A DNA stretch of 64,000 nucleotides from Dichotomocladium elegans (lineage: Eukaryota > Mucoromycota > Mucoromycetes > Mucorales > Lichtheimiaceae), in contig JAIXMN010000046.1 of assembly GCA_025716815.1 (NCBI GenBank), positions 18,501-82,500 on the forward strand. The letters are read 5' to 3'. A model generated the notes under the pieces. That model saw nothing but the letters and a program-made list of their open reading frames with translations, was not told the origin of the DNA and ran no database searches. Every line of letters begins with the position of its first letter. The first letter of the stretch is position 1. Both the position numbers and the translations under genes were made by a program. Below, piece after piece: positions 16,447 through 52,182 of the stretch.

Positions 16447-16640
16447 CAACCTATTTATCTTGCCTCAAAAGTTCAGTGCCCCTCCCCCATTCCAAATTTT
16501 TCCCAAAAACTTTCAGGCAATGAAAATCAGGTTTTGCTATTTGCACCACCCCACTTACACCACCCCTGTTTCAAACCCAGACGGCAGCCCAGCCCACCCC
16601 ACCCCTCATGCAAACCTCGCCTGGCGCACACCAGCAAGAA
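16447..16640 (+). repeat. Repeat family R (CAACTTACTT unit plus CACC-rich unit)
   Basis: Diverged copy: TTGCCTCAAAAGTTCAGTGC, then CAGGCAATG, then a CACC-rich part (TTTGCACCACCCC, CCCCTGTTTCAAACCC, CCCCTCATGCAAACCTCGCC). The first part equals the termini of MULE-2. Confidence 0.75.
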
Positions 16641-17978
16641 GACAATTTTGCTTCCATAAAGATCTGGTCTTAAAATTTCATGGACGCCCCTTGGTATTTT
16701 GTAAGCAAAAAAAAAAGATGAAAAAGGTTCTGTCCTTATTCCAGTTCGGCATTTTCAGCATCTCCTGCATTCAGTAATGTTTTTTGCTTCATCTTGATCG
16801 GCATTCGACAAATCTACGCGTCATTGCTTACTCAGATCTTAATGTCGCGTTTTCTCTTCATGGGGGAGGCAATGTTGGGATTTCAGCAGTTTGATCAGAC
16901 AAGCTGATTAGCTACATTGCGCAGATTATAAAAATTCTTGTTATTAAGGAAACAATCTCTAAAAGCGGTTCTGGCGATGGATGTTATTGTCCCAAAGTTC
17001 TGATCGCAAGGCGCATAATTGCTCTGATGCGCGATTCAAAATAGGAATGGCATTGTATGCGTAATCGGTATTAGAATAGACCGTTGGTCTGTATGCAAGT
17101 TAATTTACAAATATGGTTAGCCCCGATTTTCTTAAAATTTGATTTGGTTAATTTTTCTAATGAGGCTAAGGTCTGCGGTTGATGATTGGGCACAGATTAG
17201 AAAGTTGCCTGTGGTAGCATGGTTTTTATTTCTGAGGCTGTTAGACAAGTATCATATTGGTGGTGGTTTTTGAGTATTTTACCACACGTTTATGCTACGA
17301 GAAGGGTAGCTGTGATGGATTTAGAGCAGCGAAAATCATATGTTAGCTTGCGATGCAGATATTACTAATACCTTTTTCACATGTTAATTTTCCACACAGT
17401 GCTTCTTGCCGCAGCAAGAGCAGAAACAGTTGGACCATCATCACAGCAGAGGTGACCTTCTTAGATGAAACATCCAAACAGAAGCCTTGGCGTTCTTAAG
17501 TGAAGCATCCACATAGAAGCCTTGGTCTTCTAACACATGTACATAGCTCACAATAGAGGAACCGATCCTGTATATTCTAACATATGAAACTGTTTGCATC
17601 CGTGGATGTCTTACTTCTCTAAATCGAAGCTTGCTCCGAATTCATATAAATATAGATCCCATCATGCATTGGTAAACCTGAGTTTTTTCACCTATCCTAC
17701 CATTCATACTTTCTGACCTCCTCTTTCTTTTCTCATATTGCTTAGCAAAGATGGTAACTTTTACTAAGGAGTATAATCGATACGCGTGACTTTTAACCAT
17801 CATCACCAGGGGGATCAGTCTCCAGGAACCTGCATCTGCGGCTCTATCACACACACCGATCCGTCTTCAAATGATTGTCCTTTAAACGTTCATAGAGTTC
17901 GTCCAAGAACTACGGCTACTGAAGTATGTCTTATACCCTATGAAGATTCTGCTTTCAGTGGTTAACATTGACGTATAT
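16641..17978. other. Upstream of Helitron 1, no gene seen
   Basis: AT-rich sequence that may include the 5' end of Helitron 1. Only short, unconvincing ORFs. A pair of near-direct repeats around 17460-17530 (GAAACATCCAAACAGAAGCC and GAAGCATCCACATAGAAGCC). Confidence 0.4.
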
Positions 17979-36148: not shown

Positions 36149-36948
36149 GCAAAAATTGAATTTTGTGTCCGTAAAGGGTGGAGTTCGAAAAAATTGGGTG
36201 TGTCCCCCAAAATTTTCCGTCCAGATTTGTGACCATATTGCCTGTATTTTCTTTTTTTTTTTACTTGTTGCTCACCAAGCAAGATCTATCGCATTCCTTT
36301 CCAACTGCTGATGCATGACATTGTTCTCTGAAAGGGCAACTCAAGTAATGGCTGGCACAATGACTACTAAGCTTCGGAATTAGTGTTTCATTTCCGCGTA
36401 ATTGAGCTCGTCTGTCCGCAATTCAGTAATTTCGGTCTTACATCTTGTCTAATCGCAAAGTGCCTACCATCTGTAGTAGAATGTTGGATCTCATTCAAGA
36501 TTCGGCGCGAACATCCCTCCTGGTAAATGTCTGCCATGTTGGCAAGCGCTTTTAGATTATTAATTTATTTCGCGTAGCTCAGGCGTGTAGATTTGTACAA
36601 GTCATCTTCAAACAAACGATCCGATTTCTCCTGGAACATCCAGCATCAGGAGCATTGCTTCCTGTAGATTGACATTGTTAAGGAACGATCTGAACTTGTT
36701 ATTTATTTCCTGTAAGTAATGCGTATAATTTGACAATTCAGCATGCGTGTCCCTCCAACTATTTGAAAAAACTGCAATTTACAAAAAGACAACGCGAATT
36801 CCCACCTTTCCAATGGACACAGATAATGCGACAAATGTGCGGAATGCGACAACTGCGACGAATGTGAAGAATGTGAAGAATGCGGGGAATGTGACAGATG
36901 CGACGAATGTGAGAAGTGTAATCCCAGAATGCACGTCGTCGGTAAGTA
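36149..36948 (+). repeat. MULE-1 left inverted repeat
   Basis: Mirror of 48900-49700. Its inner end (36823-36925) is an array of imperfect GAATGTGA / GAATGCGA words, about ten in a row, a possible transposase-binding array. Confidence 0.93.
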
Positions 36949-37099
36949 GAGCAGTTAAACAATGGATTCATTATAGTCGGTGTCGCCTTAGAAGCATTAA
37001 ATCCACGGTAAATAAAATTAAAGAGCATAAAAAAGGTCCCTTTCGTCGCTAAGCAGATTTTTATTATATGTAGGATGCCACTTTTTTGAGGCACCACGT

Positions 37100-39238
37100 T
37101 TATGTCCTGCGCTGGCGGCCATGCATATCGCGAACCTGACTCTGTGCATCTTTCAAGTTGGAGAAAACTTGATTGATTTGTGACGCGGCTGCGTTGAGAA
37201 GTGCAATATGCGAATGGTTATACATGCTTCCACTGTTATGATGTATTGCGAAGGTCTCTTGATCCAGCCGTTGTGCTGCGTTTCTCAATCTATACACGGG
37301 CTTTGCAATGAGTATGAACGAAATATATCTTCTCTGAAATACTCTACCTTTCCAACGCCTCAAGAAATCGGATATTATTATCCGCAGCATCATTTACATT
37401 GGAATTTTCCGAGATTGTTTGGTTTGGATATCTGGAAGAGGCAATGGCTGATGGATGTTGTGTTGCGCGGATGCCTTCTGGGAACAGGATCCCTCCGACC
37501 CAGTTTGCGAGATACATATGCTTGCATATGGATCCTGACACCTGGAAATCAGGACAAGAGCATGACAGCATGGTATTTGAATCGTCAACTGCAAGAGCAA
37601 TTGTATGCTGTCTTTCTGGATCTGTAAATGACTGAACAGCAATATTGTTGCCCTGTCGATGCACCATCTGCTGCGCCGTATGGTCTGATTATAAATGAGT
37701 GTAAGTGTTTGAGGTCACATAAAAAGGATGGGAACATGCCTGGGATTTGTTGTGAAGCATTGTGTCGCCTTTGATCAGCTTGGTTTCTGTGAATTAACTG
37801 AAACTGAAACTCGCAGCGAACGTGATCAGTCTTAAAGTCAGGTAATACCATATCCCATAGGATATGTACTAATACATCCACACGTTGCCCAGCCATCCTC
37901 CCCAGATAACCCTCTTTTAAAAGACGGTGCCAGCTTTCAACGTAGTTATTTGTATCCGTATGATAGTGGCCCTAGATACAAAGACTAAATGAGATCATGA
38001 TATATTATATGAGAAGGTTGGGTTACCGATCTCCAAGCATGGCACCATTGTTCTTTGCTGCTTAAATAGTGCTCATCAAAATAAGCCAAGATACCAGCAA
38101 CATCCCATTGCCCTTCGTTTCCTTGAACCCAGCGACAAAAGCAATCATACTTCACTTCAAAAAGCGCAGATGATTCTGTGAACATCATTCCAACCAGATG
38201 TTCAAATGCTTGCTCCCGCTTCTCTTTCACTTCTTCTGCTGGCCGACGCATGCCTTCTAGGACTTTGACCTTTGTCCTGACCTGCTTTCGCCATGCATGG
38301 AGAATATGCCAGTGACAAATTAGAACATCCACACTGTCAGTTCCATAAGCACCATGGATGGCAGCCATTTCCGTCCTCGAGTTGTCAATCATAATCTTCC
38401 GTGGCACAAACGAATGCGTATCCTTCAGCCACAGCAGCCAATGCTTAATGGGATGCTGTGATTCGGTATTTGTGATCATCCAGCTTATTGGAACACCTTT
38501 TCCAGTGATGTGCGACTGGCTGACCAAGGTGTATAAAAAGCACGCTTCCCCATTGCGCCCAACGCATGTTTTATGCGTCGAGTCCATGCAAACAAGATCG
38601 CCGCATTCCTTGCCAATCTTATACAACGTGTCAAAATGAATAGAGCATTGCAATAGAATGTACTTACCTGAATTTGCCATTCAGACATAAAGCCAAAAAG
38701 GAATGCCCCTTCCTCAATTCCATCAAGCTGTTCATGGAGATATAGACCGCGAGAGGCACTAATTTTTGTACCCCATTGTTGAAGGCTACAGGCCATCTCT
38801 TGATGAAGATATGCCCGCCGGCGGAGTCTCTTGTTGATCGCATACTTTACAACATTGTACGTGACGCGCACTGACTGTGGCATATCTTGGCATTCTCGGA
38901 GAAGTATCTCATCCAGTTGTGCATTATCAATTCTCAGCATTGATTTGATAGACTTCCAATCAAGATGGGACTCCACTAGATCATGAACTAAACGACGGAG
39001 ACTGCGCTGAAGTGGGGCGGTGCGCATGTCTTCAATTGATCCTGGTGCATGACCATCATGCTCCCAATGATACTCAATTATAGCTTCATCGGGATTGGTT
39101 TCGTATGCCCTAATATAAACTTTTGCCTTACAACTGCAAGGCAATGGTGCAGCCTTGCGTCGCTTTGGTGGGTTCGAATTGCTTGGGATCACGGGCTTCG
39201 GGGCACCTGCTCTGTGGCATATATACACCTTAAAATAA
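37100..39238 (-). CDS. MULE-1 transposase, exons 2 onward
   Basis: Mutator-like transposase. From the splice acceptor at 39238: CHRAGAPKPVIPS, then CSCKAKVYIRAY and HDGHAPGSIEDM, the catalytic VCMDSTHK (first D), IMIDNSRTE (second D), ICHWHILHAW, and after a GT-AG intron (about 38025-37970) TNNYVESWHRLLK (E). A SWIM zinc finger CSCPDFQVSGSICKHMYL and a C-terminal region to GRQRRT near 37100 follow, with further introns near 37700 and 37350. No in-frame stop was seen within the exons, so the coding part may be intact. Its first exon is 9 kb away at 48682-48348, on the far side of the element at 39282-48337. Confidence 0.82.
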
Positions 39239-39281
39239 ACTATTTATTAAACAGCGATATGACTACTTTTTCATTTGGGTA

Positions 39282-41149
39282 CAGGATTTTCGGTTGGTTA
39301 CCGGGTAAAAGTAGAAAAGAAATAGTAAGGGGGAGATTTTTTTCGGGTAGTGCAGGAAGAGGTATAGTAGAAGCAATTATATTTTAGAGAACGAAGAGGA
39401 AAGAATATGGGAAAGAATACTTTCGTGCTAATTGGATGAATGGGAATGTAAATGTGGGGAAAGGGATTGTAGGGTAAAGTTTGTATTTCGCCTCGAGAAA
39501 GCTGCCAGTGTTAGTCCAAATGTTTGCAGTGTGAAGTCCCATTTTAGTGGTGTCCAGTTGGCAAAAGGAATTAGGCAAGTGAAGATAATTTTCGCGGCAA
39601 GGGCCATTCGCGTCCAATCGAAGACACTTTTCGTAGCACAGAAGTCGTAGTCAGTAGGAACCTATATTCGCGCCACCCACGGTTATTTTCGCGGATAGCA
39701 TTATGTTCACAAGATGCTACCTTTATTTAGTAGGGTGTAGGATATTCAGTACAAAAGAGGCTTTATGCACGCAAAGGGTTGACAGGTTTACTATAAAAGG
39801 ACATACGAAGGGGAAGACACTTCCTGAAAGAGACGACAGTAGTGTACCTTTCGCCTGCTTTGAAAACGAGAGTTTTAGGGCGTTTTCGTGAAAAAATTTT
39901 TTGCTCCTCTTCCGCTATTTTTTCATTTTCTGATTTTATTCTTTTTGTAATGCCTGAACACGAACATCCCGCATTGGACAGTCTCTGCAAGACATGTGGA
40001 GATTGACGTCTGACTCCCTTCAGACAAACTCAGAAGCGCCCAGCTCATATTCTTTGGTGCGTAGTGTAGCGAAGAATGTCGCGTGAATTAGACCTCTCCC
40101 CGATTTCCTCAGCTTCCAACGCCAATCCGCCATGTTGAATTGCCACAAAGCTACTAAGCTTTTTTTCCACCCTGCTTTGGAGAATCACTTTAACAGCAGC
40201 CAAGATATATCTTCTGCCCTACCGCAGCACACAAACAGGTGAAAGATTGGAATTATGGATGCACAGTGCAAAGGATTGTGGTAAGCTACAGGGGATTACG
40301 CGGAGAAGAATATAAAGATAACCCTTTGAAAGAAATCGAGGTCGTACTGGAATTCGAAGGGAACAATTGACGGGGACATTTCCTTGCATGAGGAACAGGG
40401 GGAACCCTCTGTCTGGATTGCTCGCAATCAAGTCGGGAAACAGAAAGCTCGTGCTGTTCTAGGATTGGGGGAGCAGTGAGTGAATGGGTCAACGGAGGTC
40501 ACATCGGTGTGGATCGCAGTTTGCTGAGCTGTGAGGAAATTGGCTTCTGAATCTACTCCAGAAGATCATTTCGTGATGGGCAAATACTAGTCTCATTCTT
40601 CGCGTGTGCGCCTTTCTTAGGCCTAGCAAGCTATGACTATAGCTCGGGTAGTAAGCACGAATGAGATGCATGCTTTTGCCAAGATAGCAAGGTTGCTCAT
40701 GCGACCTTGAGGTGCCCCAAAGCATGACTGGTCATCGTAGACGCATCGATTGAGAAAATGACAGTGAAGCGGTAGATATTTGTCATGAGGAAGGGAACTT
40801 TATAGGTAGACGGTTAAGAGCTTGTATCAGCCGTGAACAATTTATTATCGCTGGATTCTTATCATAATAAGTTTAAGTACATCCAAAAGAAGATCACGTA
40901 GAATACCGTCTCTCAAAAAGTAGACTGCGATATCCAGGTGTAGTACCAGTTTGGTCCATTGGACGGTGCAGCACCACTAGCAAATGACGATTCCAGCCAG
41001 GGCATCACATTGATCGAATGAGTTTCAGGCGTCTAATTAGATCAAGCATAGTTAGAAATGCAAATTTGAGCAATAATCAAGGACTTCGACCAATTATCTG
41101 CATCCTCCTCTTCATGGAGCACGTCGCAGGAATTGAGACGCTCACACGA
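39282..41149 (+). repeat. Giant element left terminal inverted repeat (1,868 bp)
   Basis: Exact positional mirror of 46470-48337 (coordinates sum to 87619 throughout). Short ORFs in it appear in both arms and show no family; I do not call them genes. Confidence 0.96.
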
Positions 41150-41299
41150 TTAGTAGACGCGTGCCCTGGGTCCTCAGTACCGATTTGGATGACTGGAAAG
41201 GGAAGAGAAAAAGGTTTGACCATAAAAGCTGCGTTTAGATTCCAGACGAGATTATTCATCCGTCAACCTCTTTCGCTTCCTACTCCTCGCTATCTCACT

Positions 41300-42831
41300 A
41301 TGACTAATGCAAGTGCTACAACTACTCGAATCCCTGTCCGCAGGTCTGCTAGGATTTCCAAGAAAAGACATAGGGCTAGCACCGTAAACCAAACTGCTAC
41401 TCTGCTCCGGGTTCCTAACTTAGTTAATGCAATGAGGGATCTTCAGTTGGGTTTGTAGATAAAGTATCTTACAACTTCAGAACTGGATATTTCTATGCTT
41501 ATGCCATCTACATTAATACTACATTAGGCAATGAAGAACCGGATGAATTGCTTGAAGGCGTCACAATCGAATGTTTAAGCGATCCCGATGAGCACGAAGA
41601 CGAGGATATGAGCGAATGTGAGGAGGACAATACCATGGACACAGACAATGTGCTCGATATTCCGCTTCGATCACTCATGGCTGCAATTCGCTTACGCATG
41701 CAAGAGCTTGATAGTCCTCCACCTTCACCAAGTCGTGACAGTTCGCGACATGACAGTATTGTCGATTCTTCACGTAATAAGGCAGAAAAGAAAGTTCGGC
41801 GGCGCTGCACAGTTGAGGAGAAGTTGCTTGTTGTTAACGCAGTGTATGACAAATGCCTATCTCATGCTGCCATAGCAAAGCTTTTCGGCATTGGCCAGTC
41901 CACAGTTGGCGACATTTTGAAGCAATATATCCGCGGGGATCTCAGCAATGACGCGAACAATAAACGAATCGCAACAAAATCGGGTGTTCAACGGAAAATC
42001 ACTAACGAAGGGAATGCATATATCGTTGAATTCCTTTCGAAGTACAACTCGGCCACCCTCCAGCAGATCCAGACTGCGTACCTTTCCAGATTCGGTATTC
42101 AGCTCGGTCTAACGACTATTTATGACCACCTGAGAAGACAATGCAAATTGTCTCTCAAGCGTGCCGTTTTCTATCCAGAGAAACGAAACGCTGATGAGAC
42201 CAAAGACAAGCGTCAGGCATATGTCAAGGAATGGATCTCGAGTGGAATCCTCGAGTATGAACGAAATTGCGTATTCATCGATGAGGCGTCCTATAACCTA
42301 TCGATGGGACGTAATTATGCGTGGTCTTTGGTTGGCCAGCCAGCTCGGGTCATGGTCAAGAAAATGCGCTCCCGATCCCGCACACTCCTAGCCGCTATAT
42401 CGCATGAAGGACTTGTAGGTGCATCTATCAAGGAGGGCAAAGGTGGTACCAGTAGTCCGGACTTTCTTGCATTCCTTGAGGAGGTAATGGATGATCTCGA
42501 CGGCAAAGGACGGCAAGGATGGTATCTTGTATGCGATAACGCGTCGATCCATAAAACAAAAATAATTCAGGAGGCTGTGAAGAGTAGGGGGTATAATATG
42601 GTATACTTGCCACCGTATTCACCATTCCTCAATCCAATTGAGGAATTTTTTTCAAAGGTGAAAGCAGTGTTTCGACGTGTAGCCGTGGGCCTTGATCCTG
42701 AGAACGCGCCGATGTTACAAGAGCGTCTGGCTCAAGCAATTGCGGAAGTCCGTCCCGAAGACTATGCTGGATGGGCTCGCCATGCAACCACGTTCTTCAA
42801 ACCTTGCCTTGAACGTGAGGATATGCTGTAG
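41300..42831 (+). CDS. Giant element transposase, DD34E, intact
   Basis: Tc1/mariner-type transposase, DDE_3 family. Two exons, 41300-41450 and 41528-42831, joined by a GT-AG intron (GTTTGT...TTAG) that keeps frame, give 484 residues. The N-terminal part is basic then acidic (EHEDEDMSECEEDN). A helix-turn-helix region follows (CTVEEKLLVVNAVYDKCLS, HAAIAKLFGIGQSTVGDIL), then a second DNA-binding part (SATLQQIQTAYLSRFGIQL), then the catalytic core: CVFIDEAS with D302, WYLVCDNASIH with D387, and FLNPIEEFFSK with E422, 34 residues between the last two. No stop or frameshift. It is the likely mobilising enzyme of the element; if the exon 1 start is wrong, the core is unaffected. Confidence 0.9.
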
Positions 42832-43169
42832 TTTTTCCTCGTTTATTTTTCTTTCTTTCTTTTTATAAAAATGATCTTCCTGTACACTTTTTGCTCGCTT
42901 TCCTTTCGTTTTGTTAATCGGAGTAGGAGAATAGAACGTCAACTAACATATTCCATTAGAAGTACCAGTGTAGCACAAGCGCCAAGGTGACTGTAGCACC
43001 ATTTTTAAAAAGCCAGGGATCATTGTTTGTAAAAAGTTTGCTTCTTTTTAGACAGCTTCCTCCTTAGTACCATTCTCCAACGCTACAAACCGACATGTCT
43101 TCTTACAACACCGCGAAAAACGTTAGCAAGCATGCCGCGCCTGGCCTTATCTGACAGCTGTCGAGGTCT

Positions 43170-44477
43170 ATGTCAGACATGACGATCGATGAGACTGACT
43201 CCAGTGGTATATTAATGAAGCTCCTACCGTATTCATTGTGTTTTGATCGTATATTTACAACGTAGAAGTCGACATTATTGAAAACAGCGTGGCTGAAGGA
43301 TCGTCGTCTTCCCAGCAAGGTAACAAAAGAACATTTTTGAATCGGCAGTATGGTAACATATTGGTTTTACGAAGCAGCGGCAGAAACGAGGGCTGAGCCG
43401 AAGAGAACCAGCCAGAGAAAGGACAAGGGCAAGGCCCCTAGGGCTACAGTCTATGAGAGGATGTCTAATGAGCGACGAATGCATGCACTTGCCGCGATGT
43501 TTGACACCTGTGCCACGCCTGCCACTATTGCCGCTCGAATGGGTGTTAGCGTAAGCACCCTTCGATCCATCCGCAAATGGTATATTGAGGAGGGAAGGAT
43601 TGAGCCGCTTCGGAGAGGGCGATCCGGCGAAGCAATGTTGGGTCCTGACCAGGCAAAGATCATTGTCGAAGCCATGGACCAGAACTTCGCGCTGTCTGTT
43701 TCCGAGATCGTTAACCTCTTAAAGTCAGCACACGTTCGTAATGGAGAGTTGGGTGATGTCAACTACGCTCAGACCTCTCTCATCACCTTCCTCCGCAAGA
43801 ACTGCAAGGTGGCGATGCGTAGGTGCGCTTCGTATCCAGGCGAATTTGGGCCCACTTCGAGCGAGCCTGCTTCCATGGCGGTTGAGCAAGTTCTTCGAAG
43901 GATGGAGAGAGGGCACTTGTTCCCGACGACAAACTGCGTTTTCGTTGGTGAAGCAACCTGGTTCGTCAACACGAACAAGGCCTGGAACAAGAAGCCACCA
44001 ACCAAGGTGCGTATGGAGAGCGATGATCCGGTGCCTACCCACTCGCTCTTCGTCGCCATGAATGACTACCGCATCTTGGAGATGACCATCCGCGCCCCTG
44101 CTCTCCAGACGACCGAAGAGCACCTGATGGCTTTCATCAAGAAAGTCATCGACCATTTCGATGACGTCCCGTGCGAAAAACCGAAACTGGTATTCAGCGC
44201 AATGCCAGAAAGCACGATGAACAAGGTGATGGCTCTGGCAATGGACCATGGTTTTATTACCTTCTTCCTTCCGGCTCTTGCGTCAGGCACGTTGAACCCG
44301 ACCGAGGCGATTTTCGCCAAAATTCAACAGTTGTGCCCGCGGTATAAGGAGACGAATGAGAGAGATAGAATCTCTCATCGACTTTTGGCTACTGCGAATA
44401 ATTTGCCCACCGAGGCATTTTTAGATGCCATTTGTGAAGTTCTGACGGTTGACATCCCTAGTTCACCTAGTCAGTAA
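43170..44477 (+). CDS. Catalytically degenerate transposase paralogue
   Basis: Related to the neighbouring transposase but lacking catalytic acids. Three exons (43170-43206, 43266-43319, 43378-44477) with two 58-59-bp GT-AG introns, both keeping frame, give 396 residues. N-terminus: acidic MSDMTIDETDSSEVDIIENS, then a basic patch (KRTSQRKDKGKA). A helix-turn-helix follows (RRMHALAAMFDTCATPA, MGVSVSTLRSIRKWYIEEG). The core aligns block by block: NCVFVGEATW for NCVFIDEAS (D to G221), PKLVFSAMPES for WYLVCDNASIH (D to S304 or A305) and TLNPTEAIF for LNPIEEFF (E340 kept). The ORF is fully open despite this, and the DNA-binding half is retained, so a repressor, DNA-binding partner or complex subunit is plausible. 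Function is inference. Confidence 0.85.
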
Positions 44478-45756
44478 ACATCTTTTCTTTTTCGCCTGGC
44501 TTTAAAGTTTGATCCAAAGCATAGTTCAGCTTCACCCATGTGATTCTCCATATTCCATTCCTCAAGTATCGAGATTTGTTTCGCAAATGATTATTATTCT
44601 TGCGTAGTCATCATTTGTACTAGGCGATTCACCAGGCATAATCCAACCTAGATCATTGGCATCATTTGAATAGTCTGCTGATAAGCGTAAATGGAGCCAT
44701 ATCGATAAAATAACCGAAGTACTCAATACATACCGTTGCTGATTAGTCGTACCTTTGTGATAGAATATTGTTATGTCGACAATTCAGCACTTCCACTTTC
44801 CATCGGTTGTGCATTCTCGTAGAAAATACCGATGTACGCGTAGCTTCACACTGTTCTCATTATAGCATATATCAGAGGTACGTAAGAAGAAGCGCAGCTT
44901 GGATTTGGACCATAATTTTCTGCCAAAGCGCGTAATACTACTCTATAGACAGTTTCTGCATCGCGCCAAATGAGAGATTACAACATGTATACTGTGCTGG
45001 AAAACCAAGCAAGAACGCGCCCAGGAGACTCAGAAACTTAGACAGGCAATGAAGATGTTGTGACTGGATGATGTCATATAGTTCGGCGTATTATGGAGCA
45101 CTGTCAGAGAGGACAAGACCGAAAAATACTTATGAGATTAGACGAGCTTTGGGCTTGTTTCTTAGATACACTACCGCAATACTGATCCACGGACAATTAA
45201 TGAAGCATTTACTGTCTAGCACGGCGGAAAAGATGGAGTGATAACATATATCGCAAGATGATCAATGAGAGAAAAATACTGTTCGGAATGGATTGACCAT
45301 GTAGTCATTTAAAAGAATCATGAGAGTGTAAGAGCCATGCGCCAAACCAGTCGGGAAATAAATTATTGAATGAAGTGGTTGTCTGTCAAATATGTTGTCG
45401 AGGCTTAACTCTGGCAAATCTTCTTCATCAAAGCCCCTAAATTCAAAAGCATTGCAACCATACAAAAAAAGATCATTCAGTCAATAGGTTCTCTTGATGT
45501 AAAGTCTAAGAGATCATGAGGAAATGTCTGTCTCATGTAACTGTCCGCATCTCCAATATCCAGTTCATCCCATTACTATACGTTACAATTACTGAGGTAT
45601 GAATTGATGTTGTGTTCGCCATGGGCATACATTTTTAACTCTGGGACAAACCCCTATTTCTATAGCTAACCTTGAAGGATTAGGTCGCTAATTTTTGTGG
45701 AAAAAATGTTAATCGATAAAAATGCAAGGCATCATTTATTCCAAAGGATGAGATTT
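44478..45756. other. Giant element internal spacer
   Basis: AT-rich. A 67-codon minus ORF at 45262-45465 (FRGFDEEDLPELSLDNIF) lies downstream of the 155-residue gene and could be another exon of it, but no splice was established. Nothing else recognised. Confidence 0.4.
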
Positions 45757-46284
45757 TCAAAGTTCCTTGACATCGATTGCTGGAATATTTACAGATGAAA
45801 GGAAGTGCCATCTGCTCAACAAATCCGATAATTTGATAGTGAAGTAAGTTTTAGGATGAACAATTTTTCTCTTCTTCGGTAAAGGCATGAAGGATAAAGA
45901 CGCCTCATAATCGTTGGTTTGTCTTTTCGTCTTCCCTGGACATATGAAAGCCTTTCCACGCCATGTGGTGTTGGGATGTTTCGCTACGCGCCCAGCTGCT
46001 GAATCCATACGCGGAGCAGGAGTACTGGATGCTTTATAAGAGGTAATGAATGAACATGCAAAAGAACACAGTCGCTATATGTAGTACGAACTTAATGGTC
46101 CCTCCAGGGTCAATCGTTCGAACATTTTATGGAGATGAACAGGCCGCCGCTTTTCTTGCTGTCTCACTTGGGTCTGCTGAATCTTCTTAATGGTGGCGAC
46201 AAGAGACACCAAATAACTAGATGTAGAGGAGGGGTTTGTCGATTCCGCCCTGATTGCTGTTAATTTTGGTTTTGCTTTAACCAT
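45757..46284 (-). CDS. Small basic protein, two exons, unknown family
   Basis: Exon 1 from ATG 46284 to 46092, a 60-bp GT-AG intron (GTTCGT...AAAG), exon 2 from 46031 to the stop at 45757, giving about 155 residues in one frame. The N-terminus is lysine-rich (MVKAKPKLTAIRAES); later patches are basic (RQQEKRRPVHLHK, PLPKKRKIVHPKT), the last looking like a nuclear-localisation signal. No known domain. It lies on the opposite strand to the two transposase genes, next to the right arm. A nuclear DNA- or RNA-binding accessory role is only inference; the gene itself is supported by the frame-keeping intron. Confidence 0.55.
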
Positions 46285-46469
46285 TGTAATAGGAAAAATG
46301 TTTGGAAGAACTTGGCTCTACACTTGTTGCACAGCTGGTGAATTCTTACCGTGGATCTTTTTCAGGCTTTACAACACAGCTGTATTAAGATTCCCAGTGT
46401 GGCAATGAGTTCGGAGCGAGCCTACTGCCTTTTACACTATAAGTGGCCAGAATAATCCCATCTATTCCG
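46285..46469. other. Promoter-side spacer of the small gene
   Basis: Short AT-rich spacer between the small basic-protein gene and the right arm; no motif identified. Confidence 0.35.
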
Positions 46470-48337
46470 TCGTGTGAGCGTCTTAATTCCTGCGACGTGC
46501 TCCATGAAGAGGAGGATGCAGATAATTGGTCGAAGTCCTTGCTTATTGCTCAAATTTGCATTTCTAACTATGCTTGATCTAATTAGACGCCTGAAACTCA
46601 TTCGATCAATGTGATGCCCTGGCTGGAATCGTCATTTGCTAGTGGTGCTGCACCGTCCAATGGACCAAACTGGTACTACACCTGGATATCGCAGTCTACT
46701 TTTTGAGAGACGGTATTCTACGTGATCTTCTTTTGGATGTACTTAAACTTATTATGATAAGAATCCAGCGATAATAAATTGTTCACGGCTGATACAAGCT
46801 CTTAACCGTCTACCTATAAAGTTCCCTTCCTCATGACAAATATCTACCGCTTCACTGTCATTTTCTCAATCGATGCGTCTACGATGACCAGTCATGCTTT
46901 GGGGCACCTCAAGGTCACATGAGCAACCTTGCTATCTTGGCAAAAGCATGCATCTCATTCGTGCTTACTACCCGAGCTATAGTCATAGCTTGCTAGGCCT
47001 AAGAAAGGCGCACACGCGAAGAATGAGACTAGTATTTGCCCATCACGAAATGATCTTCTGGAGTAGATTCAGAAGCCAATTTCCTCACAGCTCAGCAAAC
47101 TGCGATCCACACCGATGTGACCTCCGTTGACCCATTCACTCACTGCTCCCCCAATCCTAGAACAGCACGAGCTTTCTGTTTCCCGACTTGATCGCGAGCA
47201 ATCCAGACAGAGGGTTCCCCCTGTTCCTCATGCAAGGAAATGTCCCCGTCAATTGTTCCCTTCGAATTCCAGTACGACCTCGATTTCTTTCAAAGGGTTA
47301 TCTTTATATTCTTCTCCGCGTAATCCCCTGTAGCTTACCACAATCCTTTGCACTGTGCATCCATAATTCCAATCTTTCACCTGTTTGTGTGCTGCGGTAG
47401 GGCAGAAGATATATCTTGGCTGCTGTTAAAGTGATTCTCCAAAGCAGGGTGGAAAAAAAGCTTAGTAGCTTTGTGGCAATTCAACATGGCGGATTGGCGT
47501 TGGAAGCTGAGGAAATCGGGGAGAGGTCTAATTCACGCGACATTCTTCGCTACACTACGCACCAAAGAATATGAGCTGGGCGCTTCTGAGTTTGTCTGAA
47601 GGGAGTCAGACGTCAATCTCCACATGTCTTGCAGAGACTGTCCAATGCGGGATGTTCGTGTTCAGGCATTACAAAAAGAATAAAATCAGAAAATGAAAAA
47701 ATAGCGGAAGAGGAGCAAAAAATTTTTTCACGAAAACGCCCTAAAACTCTCGTTTTCAAAGCAGGCGAAAGGTACACTACTGTCGTCTCTTTCAGGAAGT
47801 GTCTTCCCCTTCGTATGTCCTTTTATAGTAAACCTGTCAACCCTTTGCGTGCATAAAGCCTCTTTTGTACTGAATATCCTACACCCTACTAAATAAAGGT
47901 AGCATCTTGTGAACATAATGCTATCCGCGAAAATAACCGTGGGTGGCGCGAATATAGGTTCCTACTGACTACGACTTCTGTGCTACGAAAAGTGTCTTCG
48001 ATTGGACGCGAATGGCCCTTGCCGCGAAAATTATCTTCACTTGCCTAATTCCTTTTGCCAACTGGACACCACTAAAATGGGACTTCACACTGCAAACATT
48101 TGGACTAACACTGGCAGCTTTCTCGAGGCGAAATACAAACTTTACCCTACAATCCCTTTCCCCACATTTACATTCCCATTCATCCAATTAGCACGAAAGT
48201 ATTCTTTCCCATATTCTTTCCTCTTCGTTCTCTAAAATATAATTGCTTCTACTATACCTCTTCCTGCACTACCCGAAAAAAATCTCCCCCTTACTATTTC
48301 TTTTCTACTTTTACCCGGTAACCAACCGAAAATCCTG
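46470..48337 (-). repeat. Giant element right terminal inverted repeat (1,868 bp)
   Basis: Mirror of the left arm. Noted differences: near 46915 (ACAT versus GCGA side), near 47190 (Arg versus Cys codon in a shadow ORF) and near 46484. Confidence 0.96.
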
Positions 48338-48347
48338 TACCTCATGG

Positions 48348-48682
48348 AAGCTGATATCATGAGGCCGACCCCTGCGAAGGTGACTCGCAGGTCGAGTTGT
48401 TGGCTCCTCCTCTTCTGACGCAACCATTGCTGTCCCATCATGGTTGCCAAAGCGAGCTAAGAATCTCGCATTGCTGGTACGCGAATTTGACGAAGTGCGG
48501 TTGTAAAAAGTGCAACCAAAAAGCACTTCTTGACCTTCTAGCCATGCCTTGATTTCGTTCCGCTGAATGGAAACCATTGCAGGAAGTTGATCAGAGAATC
48601 TCGGCGCCTGATCGCGATTGCCAATAGATCGCAAACTCGCAATTGCACGAGAAATGCCAGATGAATTGTTCATGGTGGACAT
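48348..48682 (-). CDS. MULE-1 transposase, first exon
   Basis: Starts at the ATG at 48682 (ACCATGTCC, good context); an in-frame upstream ATG at 48760 is possible. Contains AIASLRSIGNRDQAPRFSD, QRNEIKAWLEGQEVLF and ends HLRRGRPHDISFHE. The next bases are GGTA followed by the inserted 9-kb element; on the far side the intron continues to TTTTAAG and then GTGTATATATGCCAC, which completes ...FHEVYICHRAG in frame. So exon 1 and exon 2 belong to one gene with the large element in its intron. Confidence 0.7.
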
Positions 48683-48899
48683 GGTTACTACACAGGTGAT
48701 GCGGCGCGGTGGAAATAGCTGACAGAAGAATGAAAACGAGGACCAAAACTGTCTGAGCATACACTAAATTAAGAAAAAGTATACGGGAAACATTTTCGTG
48801 GTGCAATCATGCCATTACAGTTTATTCTTCGGCTTTGCCACAGAAACGACGTGTAAAATACAGTCAAGTCTAATACCTTGAGTATACACTAGTAATTCA

Positions 48900-49700
48900 T
48901 ACTTACCGACGACGTGCATTCTGGGATTACACTTCTCACATTCGTCGCATCTGTCACATTCCCCGCATTCTTCACATTCTTCACATTCGTCGCAGTTGTC
49001 GCATTCCGCACATTCATCGCATTATCTGTGTCCATTGGAAAGGTGGGAATTCGCGTTGTCTTTTTGTAAATTGCAGTTTTTTCAAATAGTTGGAGGGACA
49101 CGCATGCTGAATTGTCAAATTATACGCATTACTTACAGGAAATAAATAACAAGTTCAGATCGTTCCTTAACAATGTCAATCTACAGGAAGCAATGCTCCT
49201 GATGCTGGATGTTCCAGGAGAAATCGGATCGTTTGTTTGAAGATGACTTGTACAAATCTACACGCCTGAGCTACGCGAAATAAATTAATAATCTAAAAGC
49301 GCTTGCCAACATGGCAGACATTTACCAGGAGGGATGTTCGCGCCGAATCTTGAATGAGATCCAACATTCTACTACAGATGGTAGGCACTTTGCGATTAGA
49401 CAAGATGTAAGACCGAAATTACTGAATTGCAGACAGACGAGCTCAATTACGCGGAAATGAAACACTAATTCCGAAGCTTAGTAGTCATTGTGCCAGCCAT
49501 TACTTGAGTTGCCCTTTCAGAGAACAATGTCGTGCATCAGCAGTTGGAAAGGAATGCGATAGATCTTGCTTGGTGAGCAACAAGTAAAAAAAAAAAAGAA
49601 AATACAGGCAATATGGTCACAAATCTGGATGGAAAATTTTGGGGGACACACCCAATTTTTTCGAACTCCACCCTTTACGGACACAAAATTCAATTTTTGC
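48900..49700 (-). repeat. MULE-1 right inverted repeat
   Basis: Mirror of 36149-36948, including the TCACATTC / TCGCATTC array at 48925-49026. Confidence 0.93.
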
Positions 49701-52182
49701 CGTGGAATAATATCTGTGACAAGGTGAAGGTCCGACATTATGGGCGTTTGTGGGATGGTGCTAGTAGTGCCGAAACGTTCGACATGAGTGAGGATATTTG
49801 AAAGTTGGTGGTTGGTGTCACCGTTCCTATACATTTAATACATCAGTAAGGTAAGCTAGATTAATGTACTAGGCATACCAGATACTCAAAGCTTCGTGTC
49901 CTGCGATTGTTTTCGCCTTTTTGTTGCATTTTTGTTCATGGATTTCAAGAGCGATGGGTGCTCGTTTCTTGCTGCTTCTAAAATGGTTGGTGCTAGGTTT
50001 TGGCTGTTACAAATTTTCAAGGTCGATCGGTTGATCATCGACAAGTGTTCTCAGTTTGCTGAGAAAAGTGACTTTTTCTTGTTGGTTTGAGTATGTGTGG
50101 CGTAAAGGAACAAGCTGACTAAGTTCTGCATCAATCTGCTCATCAACTGTGGGCGCCATAAATGGACGAGATATAGCAATTATGCTAGGGTCCGTTATCT
50201 GTGTTTCCTGGCCTAGATAATAGATCATTGTTAGTAACAAAGTTGGTTATTATCAGAAACTGTGATTATCGCCACCTCCAACCCATATTTCTGTGAACTG
50301 CCTACCTGATAGAGGTGCAGTCTCTTCTGAGAAAAGATGCCAGCGGCGTGGAACCATTGCCAAAGGAATAACGCCTTCTGCAGGAAGTTGATGGCAGCAA
50401 GGGAGCCCATATACCGCTTTTAATGCACAACGGCATAAATTTGTCTGAAGGACGTGAAGGTGGACGAGCTCTCCTCTAATGGCATTGAATGCAAAAAGGG
50501 AGATCTTATGGCAGAGAGCCTCGAGACGTTTCTGCTGTGCCTCAGGTATATGAGCATTGGTATCAAAAGTCTCTTTGTCAACCTGCTGTTTCCATGAAGC
50601 TTCCTAATGTGCCAATATTATAAAAGATGGTACATGTAGGCTCGATATAATATATGTACCTTCATTCCATAGAATTTGTCAATTGCTTTATATGCCGTAA
50701 ACAGACTACTTGAAGCCCTGATATGCTGCTTCATGTTGGCATGTGCTCCTTCTGTGCGGTTTGTTGTCGTGTTTCCAAGATGCTGCACTCCTGCAACATA
50801 TCTTCCGACCCACTTTTCTTTCACCTGAAGCTTTCTGGTAAAGCGAACACCCAATTGAAGATGATAGGGAAAATTAGCAAAACCAATGTGAATTAGTAGT
50901 TATAGGATAGATATTACCTTTCAAGATAGTCAATAACAGCTTTGGGGTTCTTGGATTTCTTGGCAGCGTCATAATACATCTCCAGAGCCTTCTTTTCGAA
51001 CGCACTATCAGGAATGACAGTCATTCCTGATAGCTGGTCGTTCAGTGTATCCGTTGCCAGAAAGTTAAATGCCTTTTCGAGTGCTTCATAATCGGCTTTG
51101 ACCTCGAAATACTTCTGGAGGTTTGTCCGAAAGTTACGGCGCAAATGGACTCTGCAGAGGATCTTTTTGGCCGCAGGGAAAACTTCATCAAGCGCATTGA
51201 TCAAAGCCATCTCACTGTCAGTGACGAACGCCTTTGGAGACGCTGACTGATTTGCCGGCCAGACAACTTCTCTCAATGCCGAAACAAACCAGAGGTACAT
51301 GCTGTTGGTTTCTTCCAAGAGCCAGCTGCCAGCAACACCAAATGTCTTCAGTTTGGGGAACCCTATATTCCCGGTTCCAATGACATTGATGAATGGCAAA
51401 CGTTGTCTATTGGTTTGATACGTTGAATCTAGCGAAATGATTTCTGGAAAAGCCTGTGCCAGTTGGATGGCCGAGCTATGCGCAAAAAACAAGGACTGGA
51501 GATACGATTTGCCGTCTTCCTGTTTTGTTGAAAAACGGACGTCATAGCCATCATTCTCCAGAGCGCGAATAAGCTTGAACATAAGATCGCCTGGATCGTT
51601 GGTGAACCGTTTCTGGCGAAGGTTGGCAATGTCCTTTGCCTTCACTAGCGATCCTTGCTCTGTCAAGAGGGTTGCGATTGCACCATCCTTGAATCCAGAT
51701 TCAACCATCTGGATAACAAGGTGCTCAGTCTTGTTGTCAAATCGACGGTGGATTGGGTAGGTCGTGACGTCTAAGGCAGGCCGATGGTTGTGTCTATTAG
51801 TGATTGACACAACCCTCCACTCAAGGCTGTCCTTGCGCAATGGTTGTAACATAAGCTGAAAAGGACACCCATTACGCTGGGAGTGCTTTTTATTATGCTT
51901 CTTTACTTCAGTGGATGAAACGGAATTGCCTTGGCTGTCCACTATTATTGCGGTTGGACCAGGCACTGCTTCAGGAAGCTCATTTTGATTCCTGGGTACC
52001 CCGTGATGCTTGCATGAGATACGCCAATACTTCTTGCTACCTTTGTAACTGCTCTTGCAAGTGTAAAGAGCATAGCCTTGCTTTTTCGCCCATGCTTGGC
52101 AGGCCGCATAAGCAGCTTCATGGCCGGTCCAGGTACGATCCAGATCCGTGGGAATGCTACCAGAGTTTTTCATATCTGACAT
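49701..52182 (-). pseudogene. FAR1-type MULE transposase, N-terminal part of FAR1-MULE-OTU
   Basis: From ATG 52182: a FAR1 DNA-binding region (ACQAWAKKQGYALYTCKS, CKHHG, NGCPFQLMLQPLR, NRHNHRPAL), then the MULE catalytic core with ISLDSTYQTNRQ (first D), FVTDSEMALINALDEVFP (second D), CRVHLRRNF and, after an intron near 50914-50850, TTNRTEGAHANMKQH (E). A SWIM-like finger follows (CRCALKAVYGLPCCHQLP). Further exons carry SRPFMAPTVDEQIDAELSQL, then an in-frame TAA at 50007-50009 (CAA expected), PKPSTNHFRSSKKRAPIAL, and after another intron RNGDTNHQLSNILTHVERF and SDLHLVTDIIPR, where MULE-1 interrupts. The OTU domain continues at 36148. Family firm; one stop and one insertion make it dead. Confidence 0.87.

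What the first reader, a model, noticed from the sequence alone, without database searches (positions are those of the whole stretch)
39282..48337. A 9-kb Tc1/mariner-like element with 1.87-kb inverted repeats and three genes
Seen directly: TA duplication, ends CAGGATTTTC, arms 39282-41149 and 46470-48337 mirrored base for base in position with only about three differences, and three open genes inside. Known Tc1/mariner elements are mostly 1-5 kb with one gene and short ends, so this looks like an undescribed large class. Near-identity of arms suggests recent insertion or ongoing homogenisation.
Basis: partly seen in the sequence, partly recalled or inferred. Interest (0 to 1): 0.9.

Follow-up and report, generated by a model that had tools for sequence, protein, structure and literature searches.

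The report
Three-gene fungal transposon with long arms
A mould genome carries a family of large jumping genes with very long mirror-image ends that encode, beside the usual cutting enzyme, a conserved sister protein that has lost part of its cutting site, which suggests that two different subunits may share or control the jump.

Summary
In detail: a 9,056-bp element flanked by TA, arms of 1,868 bp with 4 differences, three genes. The genome is probably the mould Dichotomocladium elegans. The element is neither single nor an artefact: 53 termini (reversed-pattern control 0) give 15 paired elements, 14 with TA on both sides, and four aligned paralogous sites lack the insertion and carry one TA. 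Gene 1 (TP1) is a DD34E Tc1-type transposase. Gene 2 (TP2) is the surprise: a full-length transposase paralogue, modelled with a Mos1/Metnase/Sleeping Beauty-like fold, without the first catalytic Asp in 8 of 8 distinct copies, yet under purifying selection (dN/dS 0.25, window against C56) and downstream of TP1 in the 21 best TP1 matches. Gene 3 is a small two-exon gene on the other strand. The arms differ by 0.2% within this element but by 31% between subfamilies: concerted evolution. Long arms with three ORFs are known from ciliate Tec elements, so this is not a new class; the dead paralogue and the fungal kilobase arms look new. Most likely TP2 is a non-catalytic co-subunit; rival: a repressor. 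Function was not tested.

The parts
39280..39281 (.). TA target-site duplication, left
   Evidence: a single TA stands at this place in 4 of 4 aligned empty-site paralogues
48338..48339 (.). TA target-site duplication, right
39282..41149 (+). left inverted arm, 1,868 bp
46470..48337 (-). right inverted arm, 4 mismatches to the left arm
39282..39321 (+). terminal block CAGGATTTTCGGTTGG..., 86% identity to 5 other arms over these 40 bp
   Evidence: genome-wide pattern search
39682..39841 (+). subterminal arm block (arm positions 401-560), 76-90% identity to other arms; best at 481-520 (90%), where the window sequence holds TATAAAA; possible inward promoter or binding site (inference)
41548..42831 (+). 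TP1, Tc1-type transposase, DDE_3, catalytic D245, D330, E365 (34 residues between the last two); the open frame extends upstream (467 codons in all) and the true start or a 5' exon is not settled
43350..44477 (+). TP2, 375-aa transposase paralogue with Gly200 and Ser283 where TP1 has the first two Asp; E319 kept
46092..46284 (-). TP3 exon 1 (predicted)
45757..45995 (-). TP3 exon 2 (predicted) with stop codon; spliced product 143 aa with a KKRK basic motif, no Pfam match
36149..49700 (.). outer MULE element (host of the insertion): 801-bp TIRs 99.25% identical, 9-bp TSD CGTGGAATA (read by eye), MULE-like gene region interrupted by the inner element

Best explanation
This is a cut-and-paste transposon of the IS630-Tc1-mariner group with three genes and arms of about 1.9 kb kept nearly identical by concerted evolution. 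Shown here: structure, TA duplication, many copies, empty sites, the DD34E triad in TP1, loss of the first Asp in TP2, and purifying selection on TP1, TP2 and TP3. Inferred: TP1 cuts and joins; TP2 is a non-catalytic subunit that keeps the DNA-binding and RNase-H-like domains and assembles with TP1 on the long arms; TP3 is a small basic accessory protein; relatives that have the arms but other contents (a MULE gene, or no long gene) are moved in trans; the arms are kept alike by gene conversion or gap repair between the two copies.
Against: No expression, binding or transposition data; that TP1 and TP2 act together is inferred from linkage, parallel divergence and selection. The tree carries a warning that the two TP2 subclades join on long branches, and the TP1 clade has only 80/78 support. 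The TP2 model has mean pLDDT 68, pTM 0.57, from 8 sequences. 5 of the 25 strongest TP2 rows, and 14 of all 48 given, have no TP1 row upstream within 15 kb; why was not looked into. One of three C56-type copies has a stop in TP3 exon 1, and codon-position counts for TP3 between window and C56 are weak (21/27/31). TP2 alone found no homologue at E <= 0.001 among 5.8 billion proteins and its profile found one, from what is probably the same species, so occurrence outside this fungus is unproven.
Confidence: 0.55

Rival explanations
1. TP2 is a self-limiting repressor: a catalytically dead transposase that binds the ends or poisons TP1 multimers and keeps copy number low.
For: DNA-binding and RNase-H-like parts are kept while the first catalytic Asp is lost; only four copies of the 9-kb type were found.
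Against: A repressor carried in cis should be easy to lose, yet TP2 is linked to the 21 best TP1 rows over divergent subfamilies and is under purifying selection. This does not exclude it.
Confidence: 0.3
2. TP2 is a decaying duplicate transposase with no function.
For: First catalytic Asp lost; about 24% identity to TP1.
Against: Purifying selection and open frames in several lineages, and a predicted transposase fold; Asp1 absent in 8 of 8 distinct copies rather than in some.
Confidence: 0.04
3. The mirror-image arms are an assembly artefact.
For: Arms are near-identical; no read data were available.
Against: Fifteen paired elements with different flanks, TA at the ends, arm differences private to elements, and clean empty sites.
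Confidence: 0.02
4. A typical short-TIR Tc1 element whose ends were enlarged by passive inverted duplication; the inner parts of the arms have no role.
For: Arm length varies from about 0.48 to 1.95 kb among elements, and about 0.93 kb of outer arm is all that the MULE-carrying copies share with the C56 type.
Against: Long arms recur in the C59b element (about 1.14 kb) and the C56b element (at least 1,195 bp), and arm positions 401-560 are conserved.
Confidence: 0.2

Closest known systems
Tec1/Tec2 elements of Euplotes crassus (Tc1/mariner)
   Same: Very long TIRs (about 700 bp), three ORFs with one in complement, DD34E transposase (PMC7325037, section 8)
   Different: Tec carries a site-specific (tyrosine) recombinase; here the second gene is a transposase paralogue and TP3 has no Pfam match. 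Arms here reach 1.9 kb. Host is a fungus.
Paramecium Sardine, Thon and related ITm elements
   Same: Several ORFs per element (PMC5405496, passages); TIRs of 500-700 bp in Sardine and Thon (PMC3408717, passages)
   Different: An ORF2 of unknown function and, in the largest, a tyrosine recombinase; the passages seen mention no catalytically dead transposase paralogue.
TBE elements of Oxytricha
   Same: Three genes, all with dN/dS about 0.1-0.3 (PMC4724952, passages)
   Different: TIRs of about 80 bp (PMC7325037, section 8); accessory genes are a 22-kDa ORF and a zinc-finger/kinase protein.
Tc1-like transposases of other Mucorales
   Same: TP1 is related to proteins named from Absidia, Mucor, Parasitella, Rhizopus, Circinella and Lichtheimia, at 28-40% identity among the listed 120 of 239 matches
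   Different: Whether those have TP2 or TP3 partners could not be looked at here. In this genome 16 of the 52 TP1 rows given to lack a TP2 row downstream.
PiggyMac and its catalytically inactive paralogues in Paramecium
   Same: A catalytic transposase assisted by inactive relatives (one passage in PMC8354472)
   Different: Domesticated piggyBac proteins used for DNA elimination, not genes carried together by one mobile element.
Fanzor-bearing Mariner elements
   Same: Mariner transposase plus further genes inside TA-flanked elements (PMC3627910, passages)
   Different: Accessory genes are endonucleases, methyltransferases or Fanzor.

Membership tests
Tc1/mariner (IS630-Tc1-mariner) | TA target-site duplication | tested here: met
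   14 of 15 paired elements TA/TA, one TG/TA; single TA in 4 of 4 aligned empty sites
Tc1/mariner (IS630-Tc1-mariner) | DDE/DDD transposase with Tc1-like spacing | tested here: met
   TP1 DDE_3 E 1.8e-25; DD34E
Tc1/mariner (IS630-Tc1-mariner) | terminal inverted repeats | tested here: met
Tc1/mariner (IS630-Tc1-mariner) | N-terminal HTH DNA-binding domains | tested here: met
   CENP-B_N just above its Pfam cut-off (21.8 versus 21.2), further HTH matches below theirs
Tc1/mariner (IS630-Tc1-mariner) | cut-and-paste transposition | not testable with these tools
   Near-identical copies at different sites and empty sites fit it; no excision assay
Tec (ciliate) | long TIRs and three ORFs, one in complement | tested here: met
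Tec (ciliate) | tyrosine recombinase gene | tested here: not met
   No such Pfam match in TP1, TP2 or TP3; in the middle, coding-type mismatch patterns were seen only at TP1, TP2 and TP3
MULE | MULE transposase and TSD of about 8-11 bp (recalled) | tested here: not met
   Inner element: TA flanks and DDE_3. The outer element 36149-49700 has a 9-bp TSD and a MULE-domain match below the Pfam cut-off

The most novel reading that the evidence does not exclude
A eukaryotic Tc1/mariner lineage that works with an obligate two-part transposase: a catalytic subunit (TP1) and a co-evolving, catalytically dead paralogue (TP2) encoded in the same element, perhaps with a third small factor, acting on kilobase-long arms that are homogenised within each element.
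Probability: 0.42. Interest if true: 0.82.

Novelty: new variant of a known kind. Interest (0 to 1): 0.62.

Why it matters
Tc1/mariner transposases are the model of a simple one-protein mobile element. A lineage in which a dead paralogue has been kept beside the active enzyme through several subfamilies would show how a one-protein system becomes a two-subunit machine or gains built-in control, a step known so far (to my knowledge) mainly from domesticated systems. The arms also give a natural case of concerted evolution inside a transposon: 0.2% difference within the window element against 31% between subfamilies. The genome holds natural derivatives with only part of the arms that may show what the transposase needs to see.

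Tried and rejected
Rejected: singleton, and (as far as an assembly can tell) artefact. Rejected: a conserved long third gene in 44500-45600; mismatches between window and C56 show no codon periodicity there and identity is 60-68%. Not supported: internal copies of the 24-bp terminal words as a Sleeping-Beauty-like IR/DR; best internal matches of 6 words from window and C56 arms did not exceed the shuffled maximum, while one of three C59b words scored 18 against a shuffled maximum of 16. Inconclusive: whether the distant TP1/TP2x clade has long arms; the 1.5 kb upstream of TP1 in the C32 copy has no listed inverted copy near itself, but the ends of that element were not read. A small basic ORF lies upstream of TP1 in that copy; homology to TP3 not shown. 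No homologue of TP2 outside this fungus was found (the search needs shared 5-residue words). The Foldseek search proper was never run because the machine was busy; only the second look pdb_via was.
Full report
Observation. The arms at 39282-41149 and 46470-48337 differ at 4 of 1,868 positions without gaps; the ends are CAGGATTTTC and TA flanks both sides. The window lies in contig C64 of a 39.4-Mb genome in 122 contigs. A protein found with the TP2 profile, named as Dichotomocladium elegans (Mucorales, Lichtheimiaceae), is identical over 369 of 375 residues to a TP2 relative translated from this genome, so the genome is probably that species or a close one; this rests on one protein of a mobile element.

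Copies. A search with the left arm gave 59 matches (a lower bound). The end pattern with up to two mismatches gave 53 matches, 26 forward and 27 reverse, while the reversed pattern gave none; by my reading of that table 30 of 53 form 15 elements with both ends, and 23 do not pair. In 12 loci printed with both ends, 11 have TA on both sides and one (C34) has TG and TA; C75, C2 and the window also have TA on both sides. Three kinds are seen: (a) elements of 9.06-9.27 kb with TP1 and TP2: window, C56 and C59, and C75, which holds an extra 11.8 kb (retrotransposon-like by eye, not searched); (b) seven copies (C84, C59:128442, C63, C57, C2, C46, C13) in which about 0.93 kb of outer arm, 97-99% identical to the C56 type, flanks a core with one and the same 230-residue frame, which matches MULE in Pfam where tested (the C84 copy); C13 carries further inserts and C2 was fetched in part; (c) four elements of 1.3-1.9 kb without a long frame. 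Within kind (b) the comparisons printed are 99.25-99.95% identical over the aligned length, at different sites. So these arms suffice for movement in trans, and movement was recent (inference).

Empty sites. The window element sits inside a MULE (36149-49700, 801-bp TIRs at 99.25%, 9-bp TSD). The joined flanks match 6 places other than the window over nearly their whole length. In the 4 that were fetched and aligned there is one TA and no element (identity 97, 78, 77, 77%; the last two loci give the same alignment).

TP1. DDE_3, E 1.8e-25. D245, D330 and E365 are invariant among 11 aligned sequences (6 from this genome, 5 from the database), with 34 residues between the last two. Relatives named from other Mucorales are at 28-40% identity among the listed 120 of 239 matches. 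The best solved chain by sequence profile is Sleeping Beauty (E 1.1e-6). No ATG stands at the conserved start of the frame, so a 5' exon is possible.

Pairing. Of 115 TP1 rows and 88 TP2 rows I gave 52 and 48 to the pairing script; I left out weak rows, TP2 rows that overlap TP1 genes, and second pieces of one gene. 34 of 48 TP2 rows have a TP1 row upstream on the same strand within 15 kb; of the 25 strongest, 20 do. The 21 best TP1 rows each have a TP2 row downstream; 16 of 52 TP1 rows, all weaker, have none. In a tree of 30 proteins (8 TP1, 8 TP2, 14 of the database relatives) the TP2s form one clade (100/99, with a long-branch warning), the TP1s one clade (80/78, not firm), and each splits into a window-type and a distant subclade, as expected if the pair diversified together. 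The distant TP2x copies also lack the first Asp, and the distant TP1 read in full (C72) keeps D, D and E; another (C56d) has a changed frame near its end.

TP3. The minus-strand frame 45757-46074 matches 12 places at E <= 1, 11 of them at E < 1e-6; 10 of the 11 lie within 5 kb of TP1 or TP2, the eleventh (C63) 5.6 kb away. Codon-position counts between window and C56 are weak over the whole frame (21/27/31) and better in its last 144 bases (5/7/14). Alignment of several elements shows an upstream exon and GT-AG sites that join in frame in window and C59b: 143 and 141 residues, 77 of 140 aligned identical, pN 0.28 versus pS 0.59. No Pfam match; a KKRK motif is conserved in window, C56 and C59b (its nuclear-import meaning is recalled). 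In window-type elements TP3 lies downstream of TP2 on the opposite strand; in C59b, C72 and C94 it lies upstream of TP1 on the same strand. One of three C56-type copies has a stop in exon 1.

Arms. Substitutions within an element: window 4/1,868, C56 1/1,943, C59 3/1,944, five MULE-type copies 0 or 1 per about 1,210, the short elements 8/475, 9/480, 6/769 and 3/765; between window and C56 508/1,653. Homologous arms that differ by 31% between subfamilies but by 0-0.2% inside long elements (0.4-1.9% in the short ones) must have been homogenised repeatedly (inference). Long arms recur in C59b (about 6.66 kb, arms of about 1.14 kb, 1 mismatch and 4 gap openings in 1,143 columns, TA at both ends) and C56b (at least 1,195 bp at 100%). 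Conserved arm blocks are the terminal 40 bp (86%) and positions 401-560 (76-90%); 481-520 is 90% conserved and in the window holds TATAAAA: a possible inward promoter or binding site. In the MULE-type copies a further 0.29 kb inside the shared arm is also mirrored, and TP3 changes side between subfamilies; both fit arms that grow and shrink by conversion (inference).

How it probably works. TP1 performs cutting and joining at TA. TP2, with the same domains but no first Asp, most likely assembles with TP1 on the arms as a structural or regulatory subunit (about 0.5), less likely acts as a repressor (about 0.3). TP3 is probably a nuclear accessory protein (a guess from the basic motif).

Known or new. 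Long TIRs and three ORFs, one in complement, are known from Tec (PMC7325037, section 8 read), and multi-gene ITm elements from Paramecium and Oxytricha (PMC5405496, PMC3408717, PMC4724952; passages seen). A catalytic transposase helped by inactive relatives is known for the domesticated piggyBac system of Paramecium (PMC8354472, passage). The listings of ten literature searches showed no title or abstract start describing a Tc1/mariner element that itself carries a dead transposase paralogue, or a fungal one with kilobase arms and three genes; only open-access papers were searched. Hence: new variant of a known kind.

Noticed in passing
window 36149-49700: Outer MULE with 801-bp TIRs (99.25% identical) and 9-bp TSD CGTGGAATA; its gene region is interrupted by the 9-kb element.
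   Followed up: partly
L011 to L017 (C84, C59:128442, C63, C57, C2, C46, C13): Hybrid elements: Tc1-type outer arms around a MULE gene with its own mirrored 0.29-kb stretch, recently spread; C13 carries further inserts including another Tc1-like gene.
   Followed up: partly
window 16634-17065: Copy of the inner-end segment found in the hybrid elements (98% and 94% identical).
   Followed up: no
C46:1908800, C73:22328, C101:518929, C69:59593, C59:109343, C93:34528, C56:23877: Probable internal-deletion derivatives in which part of TP1 is followed at 73-210 bp by part of TP2.
   Followed up: no
C59:93544-94203 (L003, L025): Fragment 98% identical to part of the window arm: remnant of a second window-type copy.
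   Followed up: no
L058 (C32), upstream of TP1: In the distant clade a small basic ORF (begins MAKVNITKGKER) precedes TP1; possible TP3 counterpart, homology not shown.
   Followed up: partly
window 50914-52182: MULE-type transposase gene on the minus strand outside the finding (MULE domain E 5.2e-17).
   Followed up: no
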